From the NCBI GenBank assembly GCA_014925825.1, contig JACGCK010000091.1, positions 62,001 to 126,000 on the forward strand: 64,000 nucleotides of DNA, written 5' to 3'. The notes under the pieces are model-generated. The model was not told where the DNA came from and searched no databases. It saw only the letters and a list, made by a program, of their open reading frames with translations. Every line of letters begins with the position of its first letter. Position 1 is the stretch's first letter. The DNA comes from Pholiota molesta. Taxonomy: Eukaryota > Basidiomycota > Agaricomycetes > Agaricales > Strophariaceae. Shown one piece after another: positions 45,151 through 51,812 of the stretch. The position numbers were made by a program, and so were the translations under genes.

Positions 45151-45239
45151 GGTGGCTTGGCCCAAGTAGGCTCGGAGCAAGCCCACGTGCTCCGGCCGCT
45201 TGCGGCGCCTTCGCAGAAGGGGCTTGCTCCAAAGTAACA
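45151..45239. repeat. Left terminal inverted repeat blocks
   Basis: The outer block runs 45151-45183 and the inner 19-bp block 45221-45239. Subterminal GGCTTG/CAAGCC motifs repeat in both directions (45154, 45178, 45221), as in transposase-binding regions. Confidence 0.8.
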
Positions 45240-45670
45240 GTTTTGGCATGCCTTTCTGAATCGTTGCGCCCCGTCCTCAAACGACTCGCGCACCTATTAC
45301 AACAGTGTATATGTACTATCCCTATACTATACGAACTAAATCTGCAATTTGAAGTATACAAAAGGACTGAAAACTGAATGAAATTAAGTTATAAGAAGCG
45401 TCACATGTGTTTTGACGTGTGTCTTGTTTCTCTGCCAAATGTTGGTTTTTCTCGCTGAAAATTTCCCATGAAGGTCTCGGTCTATATTATAGACGAATTA
45501 GATAGTTTGAGGAGCGATTAATTATCGGTATGAGATATAATATCTCAATGATTATTGAGCTTCAACCGGTGACATGGCCATGTCACACGCGGCGATCGCG
45601 CGCGGGGCGCTCGAGATCAATATATGGCCGCCCGCACATAGATTGCATTCTACTTTGCCCTGGCATAGCG

Positions 45671-48575
45671 ATGGCACTTAACGGCTTCTCAGTCAATCCA
45701 AACTGGAAAACAATACTCGAAGATTCCAGCTTTACTGCTATCGGGCTGGAAACAACTGATCTACAATGTCAAATCCTCTTCTCTCTGCTCGTCCACTTCA
45801 ACCTTTCTATCCGCCACTTTGTTAGCTTTCTTTTTGACAGCGAACTTCCAGCAGTAAAAATGCGTGCAGGGGCAGTTATGTCTACTAAAGGAAACAGGAT
45901 CGACTCATTTCTTCCTCCAATACTTTTTGAATTATGGCAACAGAACTTCCCAGCATCCCGATCATCTCTTGATCAGCTCGTCATTTTACCTCGTGCAAAA
46001 GAGATCGTCCTTGCTGAAAGCAATAAAATTATTAACGGCCCTTCCCTTTCAATGAAATCTACACAGTGCACCACGGACTATATCTTTGACGCTTTGAAGC
46101 CTGGCCACTTTGCCACCTTGTATAACTCTCTTGCACCATTCACTTGGGATCTCCTTCTTACATTCACCACTTCACCCAACCGCTATCGAAAATATCATTT
46201 TAAAGGCAAGACAAATTCAAATGACAAAGGAGAAAATATTCTAGAGGACGACTGGCTTGAAGACGGCGATTATCAATCTCCCGGGCCCGAACAATTTTAC
46301 AGTGAAACTGGAACAGACTGGTTCAAACAGGGATTCACTCGCAATCCAACATTTGTTAGGTGTTCAAATTTTATGCATTAGCTCAATTGCTTATTAAAAA
46401 TCTAGACCTTGGTTTTTATTATCAGTATGATGGCATTTACACGGAATACATCGACGAATCTTTTCCCTCTCATTATGGGTCTATTTTTGGAAATCGGCGG
46501 CACCAGCTCTCGCATCCTCTCAACCTTGAGCAATGCGGGAGTCTGCATCTCCATTAATTCAATCGAACGACTCAAGAAGATATTATCTGAAGATGCGAAA
46601 AAATCTGCTGTTGAACTGATCAAATCCAATTCTACTCAAGAGTTTCTCATTTTTGACAATATCAATTTATATCTTCGGAAGTCCCAGCAACGTTTATTCA
46701 ACAAGAACACTATGATCCACGCGACTAATGCTGCCGTAATATCCCTTCCTAACTCGAAGATACTCGATGGCAGTGATCTTGACAAGAAGCTGAAGAATCG
46801 AGGTAATCGGGTACGCGCTACAGGGCGTGACATCAGACCAACTCCGGAAGATGAAGGCAAGATGTATACTTCTTTTGAAGGTCTGGTTATCTATATGTTG
46901 CTCTCGTACTGTCCTGGAAATCAGGAATGGGATGACCGTGCTAGTATCAGAAAGCTTGCCGAACAGAAAATGGCCAGAGATCGTCCACTTCCCATTCGAA
47001 AAACTGATACTCGGCCGTTGGGCGCTTTTGACGTGAACGAAGGATCTAAAAAAGGCATCATCGACATGATCAAGCAACTACAGGAGACTTCAGAACTCAC
47101 CGAAGAGGAATGGTCTTCCAAAGTACGAATTATTGGAGGTGACTGGCTTACAGCCAGCAACTTCCGAAGTGCGCGTCGGGACCGGAGTGGCGATATCAAC
47201 ACAATGGAGCGAATGGAATATGTTGAAGATATCAGTCAATTATTCCACTTCGCGCTCAATGCATCCCACATGCTTATGCGCTTGCACTTTGGCAATTCCC
47301 TTCTTGATCCAGGTTCATTAGCGAAACATAAAGGACTCCTCAATCGAACTTGGGATGCCGCAAAGCCCAATTATGCAGATGGAAAGGCCCTGGTTCGTCA
47401 TTCTTTGATTGCGAGAATTCTATACAGCCTCATGTAAGTGTTCATTCTATTTTAAATTCGTTGGTGGTTCTCTGATATAAACCTTTTTTTTTTCTGCTGA
47501 TAGGATTGACCTGAAAGTGAATTTTCATTCAAAACTTGCCTCTTGGAAGCCCACTTTGCAAGCCATCGAAGAATTTGCTCACCGTTTCGTCCAAAACTTT
47601 GCCACCATCCGACGCGCCGCAGAAGCCAAAGCAATCGACGATGATTACCTTGCCCATTCCATCTACTTCATCCGTGATGCCCTGCTGTTCTGCGAATTCG
47701 AGCATGCTGTTAGTCATGCAGATGCGGGTCGTGTGCTCCGTGTCCTCAAATACTGGGCCTTTTCATTCCGTGGAGCTGGATTGCATAACTATGCTCGTGA
47801 GTGCATCGAGGTGCTTATCCGATGGGAATATGAACTAGACAACGATCTTCGTCGAGCGCTTGAGGAATCATGGTTTGTGAACCGTTGGGGCCTTCCCGGA
47901 AGATGGATTGCAGCAGATCTATATCTTGAACAGCTTAATTATTGGGTCAAGGTAAGTTTGTGTATATTCTACTAGTAAGCTATTTTAATTCTCTGATTCT
48001 TTGATTCTATATAGCGCGTTTTTATTGCAAAAGGATCTGGCGTCACAATCGAGTATATCATAGAAAAGGGCTCAGCTTGCGTTGAAGTCTTCCGCAAATT
48101 GAGCCATGAATTTTCTCGGACATTTGGACATGCAGATCGAGCGAGGCAACACCGCGAAGTCAAGATCGATGACGATCTACGGCTTCTCAGTGAGGACATG
48201 CTGAAAGCACGCTTGCACGTCAAAACCCCCAATCGACCTATAAAAACGACCGCCAAAGTCAATCGTAAAGGTAGGGTGACAGCTCCTGCAACAAGCAGTA
48301 TTTTCGATGCATGCGACGCTGGCGCGCAGATTCTGCAAAGTGGGAAGTTCACAGAATTCCTATGTACGACCACATGGGACCCCGCCCTTGGATACACAGC
48401 GTTGATGGACGACACTCAGAAAGACCCCAATGTTCTTCTTAATGGGACTGCTTATGATATGGATAAGAGCAATCCCATTACTGGGGATAGCTTCAATGAT
48501 ATTGACGATGGAGATGATTTCATTTTGTCTTATCCAGGTCTAGGGAGTCTTGGAGGGGGAGGAGAATTTATATAG
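45671..48575 (+). CDS. DUF6589-like protein, candidate transposase
   Basis: Exons 45671-46359, 46426-47433, 47504-47951 and 48015-48575 give 901 aa in consistent phases. I chose ATG 45671 (MALNGFSVNPNWKTI); the frame is open upstream. The middle shows the pattern I associate with DUF6589, common in mushroom-forming fungi: IIGGDWLTASNFRSARRDRS, then MERMEYVEDISQLFHFALNA, MLMRLHFG, and a helical part with HSIYFIRDALLFCEFEHAV, GRVLRVLKYWAFSFRGAGLH, and CIEVLIRWEYELD. The GGDWLT...R stretch with conserved Asp and His residues could be a nuclease or recombinase core; this is inference. The C-terminus is basic then acidic (FNDIDDGDDFI). It lies inside terminal inverted repeats, opposite a RecQ helicase gene. 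Confidence 0.85.
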
Positions 48576-51228: not shown

Positions 51229-51698
51229 ATCAGGTTGGATAATTTGGTAAATTATTGCATTTCTATGTATCAGCTTGCTATCGATCTCGAATCGATCGCC
51301 TCAGACTACACGAGGATAACGCGTGCGCGATGCAGCGCGCGTGTCACGTGTGATCGCATGTATACATTTTGGGGTGATTTAGGAAAAGGACAGTCACTGA
51401 CGGCCGCAAATCAGACTTTCTCACCAAATTCTTCAGTGAGTCCTGTAGTAGTAGCCTCCAAGTGCTTAAGTTCAGCGCGGTACATTAAGAGTCCAAGATC
51501 TGAGCTCAGAATGGATGAACTACAAAAAGTGACATGTACACCAGCATGTATGAAATCCAGTCAGTCTTACATGAGCTTATTTGCGTATTTCAAAGCCTTC
51601 AGTGCATTATTGACATATGTAGACTTTCTGATTTAAGTTTCAGAGAGAGCGAATAACATTAACATGCCTAGCGTCGACGAAACAAAGGCCGACAGATT

Positions 51699-51812
51699 TG
51701 TTACTTTGGAGCAAGCCTCCCTACGGGAAATGTTAAAAACACTATACATACAAACAAACAATTTCCTTTTTAGAGTAGGGCGGCTTGTTCCGAACCTATG
51801 GCCCAAGCAACC
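51699..51812. repeat. Right terminal inverted repeat blocks
   Basis: The inner block 51699-51717 is the exact reverse complement of 45221-45239. The outer block 51782-51812 is an imperfect reverse complement of 45151-45183. Confidence 0.8.

What the first reader, a model, noticed from the sequence alone, without database searches (positions are those of the whole stretch)
45151..51812. Candidate undescribed DNA transposon carrying a DUF6589-like gene and a RecQ-like helicase
Two intact genes of about 2.9 and 2.6 kb face each other tail to tail. They are enclosed by inverted repeats with the same two-block order at both ends: a perfect inner 19-mer and an imperfect outer block of 31-33 bp rich in GGCTTG/CAAGCC. 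The 19-bp perfect match 6.5 kb apart is very unlikely by chance. DUF6589 proteins are abundant in agaricomycetes without assigned function, and a RecQ helicase as a partner is unusual for a cut-and-paste element. If real, DUF6589 would be a transposase or recombinase family.
Basis: partly seen in the sequence, partly recalled or inferred. Interest (0 to 1): 0.92.

Follow-up and report, generated by a model that had tools for sequence, protein, structure and literature searches.

The report
Mushroom DNA transposon with RecQ helicase
This is an apparently intact jumping gene in the mushroom Pholiota molesta, carrying its own probable cut-and-join enzyme and a DNA-unwinding helicase; it fits a described kind of transposon (AcademH) and gives a likely job to a protein family, DUF6589, that Pfam lists as having no known function.

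Summary
Its limits are 45167-51798 (6,632 bp): imperfect 17-bp terminal inverted repeats, an exact 9-bp target duplication (TGGCCCAAG), an inverted 19-mer inside each end, two convergent genes. A homologous contig in the same assembly carries the site empty with one target copy. Three more DUF6589+helicase elements here, tested likewise, also have 9-bp duplications and one-copy empty sites (4 of 4). 31 of 36 DUF6589 loci lie within 6 kb of a RecQ-type helicase match. The DUF6589 protein's structure model has RNase H topology; its best aligned PDB chains are DDE transposases (Hermes, P element, Tn5). D312, D474 and E670 are nearly invariant in relatives. So DUF6589 is very probably a DDE transposase. 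The kind is not new: AcademH transposons carry a helicase and make 9-10 bp duplications, and fungal Academ copies are reported with RecQ-family domains. No Academ reference sequence was available, so membership rests on gene content and duplication length. Verdict: new member of a known kind. Possibly new is the link between DUF6589 and a transposase; the papers searched held none.

The parts
45158..45166 (.). 9-bp target site duplication, left copy TGGCCCAAG
   Evidence: direct reading, exact match to right copy, one copy (TGGCCCGAG, one base different) at the empty site
45167..45183 (+). left terminal inverted repeat TAGGCTCGGAGCAAGCC (15 of 17 match the right end)
   Evidence: 4 of 5 left-end alignments of other copies begin at this base
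45221..45239 (+). left subterminal 19-bp inverted repeat; its GGCTTGCTCC is the inverse of GGAGCAAGCC in the TIR (putative transposase-binding pair, inferred)
45671..48575 (+). DUF6589 transposase gene, exons 45671-46354, 46406-47433, 47504-47951, 48015-48575 (906 aa)
   Evidence: Pfam PF20231 at residues 369-766; fold
46655..46657 (+). codon of D312, putative first catalytic Asp
   Evidence: coordinates; conservation; in strand 306-316 of the model
47141..47143 (+). codon of D474, putative second catalytic Asp
   Evidence: coordinates; conservation; just after strand 469-473
47799..47801 (+). codon of E670, putative catalytic Glu
   Evidence: coordinates; 51 of 51 in A1, 12 of 13 in the own-genome set; in helix 665-680
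48623..51228 (-). RecQ-type SF2 helicase gene, exons 51228-50875, 50814-49821, 49767-48623 (830 aa, own gene model); ORF of the last exon without Pfam match
51699..51717 (-). right subterminal 19-bp inverted repeat
51782..51798 (-). right terminal inverted repeat (reverse complement TAGGTTCGGAACAAGCC)
51799..51807 (.). 9-bp target site duplication, right copy TGGCCCAAG

Best explanation
It is an autonomous DNA transposon of the AcademH kind. The 906-aa DUF6589 protein is its DDE transposase: it would bind the inverted GGAGCAAGCC motif pair at each end, cut the element out with an RNase H-fold active site (D312, D474, E670) and join it to target strands cut 9 bp apart, giving a 9-bp duplication. 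The RecQ-type helicase encoded on the other strand would unwind or process DNA at the ends or at the gapped product. Shown: boundaries, duplications, empty sites, gene content, predicted fold and conserved triad. Inferred: end binding, cut-and-paste rather than copy-out, and the helicase's step.
Confidence: 0.85

Rival explanations
1. A transposon whose DUF6589 transposase belongs to a separate superfamily that gained a RecQ helicase and a 9-bp TSD independently of AcademH.
For: No Academ sequence could be compared here; 12 of 12 DUF6589 proteins scanned hit no other Pfam transposase family; the best aligned folds are hAT, P element and Tn5, with RAG1/Transib lower.
Against: The combination of DDE transposase, RecQ-family helicase, 9-10 bp TSD and fungal low-copy distribution is what is written of AcademH/Academ (passages).
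Confidence: 0.1
2. KolobokH, the other fungal DNA transposon lineage with a RecQ helicase.
For: Encodes a RecQ helicase and is found only in fungi (passage of PMC9587614).
Against: [quoted passage not shown] here the TSD is 9 bp without TTAA and the helicase is a separate gene on the opposite strand.
Confidence: 0.02
3. A mobile element of another 9-bp-TSD type, such as a MULE, that picked up DUF6589 and RecQ as cargo.
For: MULEs make TSDs of about 9 bp (recalled); TSD length alone does not tell them apart.
Against: No transposase domain other than DUF6589 matched in the 7 ORFs of the two genes, in the 10 other ORFs of 100 aa or more that lie in or overlap the element or in 12 DUF6589 proteins; DUF6589 itself has the transposase fold; the pair recurs at 31 of 36 loci.
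Confidence: 0.02
4. Ordinary host genes between chance repeats.
For: The deposited names are 'hypothetical protein'.
Against: Exact TSD, empty sites, dispersed copies ending at the same bases, 0 of 20,000 resampled flanks.
Confidence: 0.01

Closest known systems
AcademH lineage of Academ DNA transposons (Kojima 2020, Mob DNA 11:15; paper not held, known here through passages of PMC10045372, PMC10799480 and PMC6416283)
   Same: DDE-type transposase, helicase, 9-10 bp TSD, low copy number, present in Basidiomycota, RecQ-family domain reported in fungal Academ copies
   Different: No difference established. Whether the DUF6589 protein is homologous in sequence to the described AcademH transposases was not testable here.
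AcademX
   Same: Same superfamily if the above holds
   Different: Encodes a nuclease instead of a helicase and makes 3-4 bp TSDs (passage of PMC10045372); no nuclease domain matched in the window ORFs scanned
KolobokH
   Same: Fungal DDE transposon with a RecQ helicase (passage of PMC9587614)
   Different: TTAA 4-bp TSD; [quoted passage not shown]
hAT (Hermes) and P element transposases
   Different: TSDs of 8 bp and no RecQ gene (both recalled); no Pfam match shared

Membership tests
AcademH | DDE transposase | tested here: met
   RNase H topology in model, DDE transposases as best aligned chains, D312/D474/E670 conserved; prediction only, catalysis not tested
AcademH | encodes an SF2/RecQ-type helicase inside the element | tested here: met
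AcademH | 9 or 10 bp target site duplications | tested here: met
   9 bp in the window element and in three other DUF6589+helicase elements, each with a one-copy empty site; one related element reads 10 or 8 bp
AcademH | transposase groups with Academ transposases by sequence | not testable with these tools
   no Academ reference sequence found among the tools' libraries; Kojima 2020 not held
AcademX | encodes a nuclease, TSD 3-4 bp | tested here: not met
   no nuclease match in the 17 window ORFs scanned; TSD 9 bp
KolobokH | TTAA target duplications | tested here: not met
   TSD TGGCCCAAG; definition from PMC9587614 passage
[quoted passage not shown]
   separate gene on the opposite strand
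MULE (MuDR) | MULE transposase domain (Pfam PF10551) | tested here: not met
   no match at E<=1 in 17 window ORFs or 12 DUF6589 proteins
hAT | 8-bp TSD (recalled) and hAT dimerisation domain | tested here: not met
   9-bp TSD; no hAT Pfam match
Helitron | HUH nuclease with a helicase, no TIR or TSD (the lack of TIR/TSD recalled) | tested here: not met
   TIR and TSD present; helicase is RecQ type; no Helitron_like_N match

The most novel reading that the evidence does not exclude
DUF6589 defines its own DDE transposase superfamily, widespread in mushrooms and usually paired with a RecQ helicase, that is not Academ and arrived at helicase-assisted 9-bp transposition separately.
Probability: 0.1. 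Interest if true: 0.7.

Novelty: new member of a known kind. Interest (0 to 1): 0.42.

Why it matters
DUF6589 (PF20231) is listed as a family of unknown function, and the members listed come almost wholly from Agaricomycetes under the name 'hypothetical protein'. Reading it as a DDE transposase would turn these from unknown host genes into transposon genes and explain the helicases beside them. On P0001 the Pfam match begins at residue 369, after the first putative catalytic Asp (D312), which may be why the fold was not recognised. The window copy is apparently intact and present on one of two homologous contigs, so it offers a concrete element on which to test why a cut-and-paste-type transposon carries its own RecQ helicase.

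Tried and rejected
KolobokH, MULE, hAT, Helitron and host-gene readings were tested and set aside (see Membership tests and rivals). A sequence search of PDB with the 51-protein DUF6589 profile gave 0 hits at E<=1. Foldseek alone gave no match at E<=0.001, so the fold claim rests on secondary-structure order, the VIA re-alignment and the conserved triad. A profile search from divergent paralogues (289 hits, 120 listed) listed no relative outside fungi that I could recognise by name, so DUF6589 in animals, where AcademH is said to occur too (title of Kojima 2020), was not shown. Literature: 'DUF6589' in 0 papers, 'PF20231' only in an unrelated optics paper, 'AcademH' in 7 papers, some of them plainly unrelated. 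Of the other searches I saw the listings. I saw passages only of PMC10799480, PMC10045372, PMC12730594, PMC8290104, PMC9587614, PMC12210899, PMC9674265, PMC12411881 and PMC6416283; in the passages seen none names DUF6589. Kojima 2020 and Muszewska 2017 are not held. The head-to-head pair in L053 was not explained. TIR+TSD were not found in L048, L049, L050 and L052 even with relaxed settings; L042, L043, L045 and L051 were cut by my fetch limits and L047 holds only a fragment of DUF6589.

Full report
WHAT IS THERE. The window lies in a 65.6-Mb, 625-contig assembly. The DUF6589 protein P0001, letter for letter the translation of the gene read here, is deposited from Pholiota molesta on a contig of the same length, 186,254 bp, as C617. 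The element spans 45167-51798 (6,632 bp). Its ends are TAGGCTCGGAGCAAGCC and, reverse-complemented, TAGGTTCGGAACAAGCC (15 of 17 equal), and it is flanked by an exact 9-bp direct repeat TGGCCCAAG. In the window, 4 of the 5 matches to GGAGCAAGCC with at most one mismatch lie in the element's ends, as one inverted pair per end; the motif was chosen after seeing the ends, and the total of 5 in the window is what chance gives (mean 4.83), so only the placement is notable. In 20,000 resampled pairs of 400-bp flanks no exact 9-mer with a TIR of 14/17 or better occurred.

GENES. The transposase gene has four exons and 906 codons. The helicase gene, on the minus strand, has three exons in my model and 830 codons; no Pholiota entry appears among the 120 helicase hits listed of 1,969, so this model is mine, supported by 46% identity over 90% to a Hygrophoropsis protein. 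The stop codons lie 47 bp apart. The helicase matches RecQ family profiles (TIGR00614, E 6.6e-52, below that model's curated cut-off) and RECQ5 chains of the PDB (E 3.8e-30). The ORF of its last exon has no Pfam match. Ten other ORFs of 100 aa or more in or overlapping the element gave one weak, unrelated Pfam match (E 0.032).

MOBILITY. Counting the window, right-end matches occur at 7 places and left-end matches at 6 in the genome. In one search, 6 of 6 right-end alignments of other copies reach element position 6632 and 4 of 5 left-end alignments reach position 1; L054's left end is broken at position 54 and only a right end was seen in L055. Five copies have both ends: the window (TGGCCCAAG), L053 2008-3069 (CAAAGGTCG), L056 1026-2015 (TCTTTCGAC) and L057 573-7456 (ACAGTCCAA) have exact 9-bp TSDs; L053 926-1983 does not. 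In the other copies nothing between about element positions 512 and 6102 matched, so they lack both genes; L057 holds a Gypsy-type polyprotein instead. Only the window copy was found full-length. The joined flanks matched contig C72 without a break, and base by base C72 holds one target copy and no element (one-copy model 832 against 805 for two copies). C72 and C617 are collinear on both sides at 85-93% identity, so C72 is the other haplotype or a duplicate.

RELATED ELEMENTS. A Pfam search found 61 exon matches to DUF6589, which merge into 36 loci; 31 of 36 have a helicase match within 6 kb, and 33 of the 41 helicase matches lie near a DUF6589 locus. Of the five without one, C136 (L044) carries a divergent helicase inside its TIRs; C98 (L046) has helicase-like motifs by eye, but the one piece scanned had no Pfam match; C135, C223 and C313 were not resolved. 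For the 22 hits, 19 had an opposite-strand helicase match within 6 kb, 13 convergent and 6 divergent. Fourteen 10-kb loci were scanned for TIR+TSD. Of the 9 with the pair well inside, TIR+TSD were found in L039 (10 or 8 bp), L040, L041 and L044 (9 bp), an inverted repeat without a clear TSD in L046, none in L048, L049, L050 and L052; five shuffles gave none. The three 9-bp cases were tested for empty sites, and 3 of 3 have a match across the joined flanks elsewhere in the genome: L040 at 77% identity over 279 of 360 bases, L041 twice at 87% on its own contig C603 (so its target is a repeated sequence), L044 at 86% over all 360. In each aligned case the empty site has one target copy, with one (window, L041, L044) or two (L040) base differences in the 9-mer, and the one-copy model scores better than the two-copy model.

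COMPARISON WITH WHAT IS KNOWN. A passage of PMC10045372 states that AcademH makes 9 or 10 bp TSDs, AcademX 3 or 4, and ties this to helicase versus nuclease. Passages of PMC10799480 state that AcademH occurs as low-copy elements in Basidiomycota, Ascomycota and Mucoromycota. A passage of PMC6416283 reports that 81% of fungal Academ copies (1,568/1,938) hold protein domains such as PF00270 and recQ_fam and are often annotated as host genes. A passage of PMC9587614 gives KolobokH a RecQ helicase and Kolobok a TTAA target. I read passages only. On TSD length, helicase and distribution the element is AcademH-like.

MECHANISM. Shown: precise insertion with a 9-bp duplication for four DUF6589+helicase elements. 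Strongly supported: DUF6589 as the DDE transposase. Inferred: the motif pairs as transposase-binding sites, cut-and-paste, and a helicase that opens or processes DNA at ends or gaps.

Noticed in passing
L053 926-1983 and 2008-3069 (G000:C456 about 268325-270468): Two related non-autonomous copies lie head to head 24 bp apart; the second has a direct 9-bp TSD, the first has the same 9-mer in inverted form on its two sides (CAAAGGTCG / CGACCTTTG), an arrangement I could not explain.
   Followed up: partly
L057 573-7456 (G000:C1): A non-autonomous copy with both ends and TSD is 6.9 kb long because it holds a Gypsy-type retroelement with a 1,375-aa open frame.
   Followed up: no
window 48623-49767, minus strand: The helicase has a long C-terminal part (roughly the last 300 residues) without any Pfam match.
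   Followed up: no
window 40000-55600 against G000:C72 56392-66545: C72 is collinear with this region at 85-93% identity, so the assembly seems to hold both haplotypes (or a large duplication) here.
   Followed up: partly
L043 3105-4379 (G000:C36): A separate 1.3-kb stretch with inverted ends TAGGGCTGAGCACGGGTGC and an 8-bp duplication TCGCTGTC.
   Followed up: no
P0035: A DUF6589 protein of Ganoderma boninense is named 'Sensor protein zRas' in UniRef, probably a wrong name.
   Followed up: no
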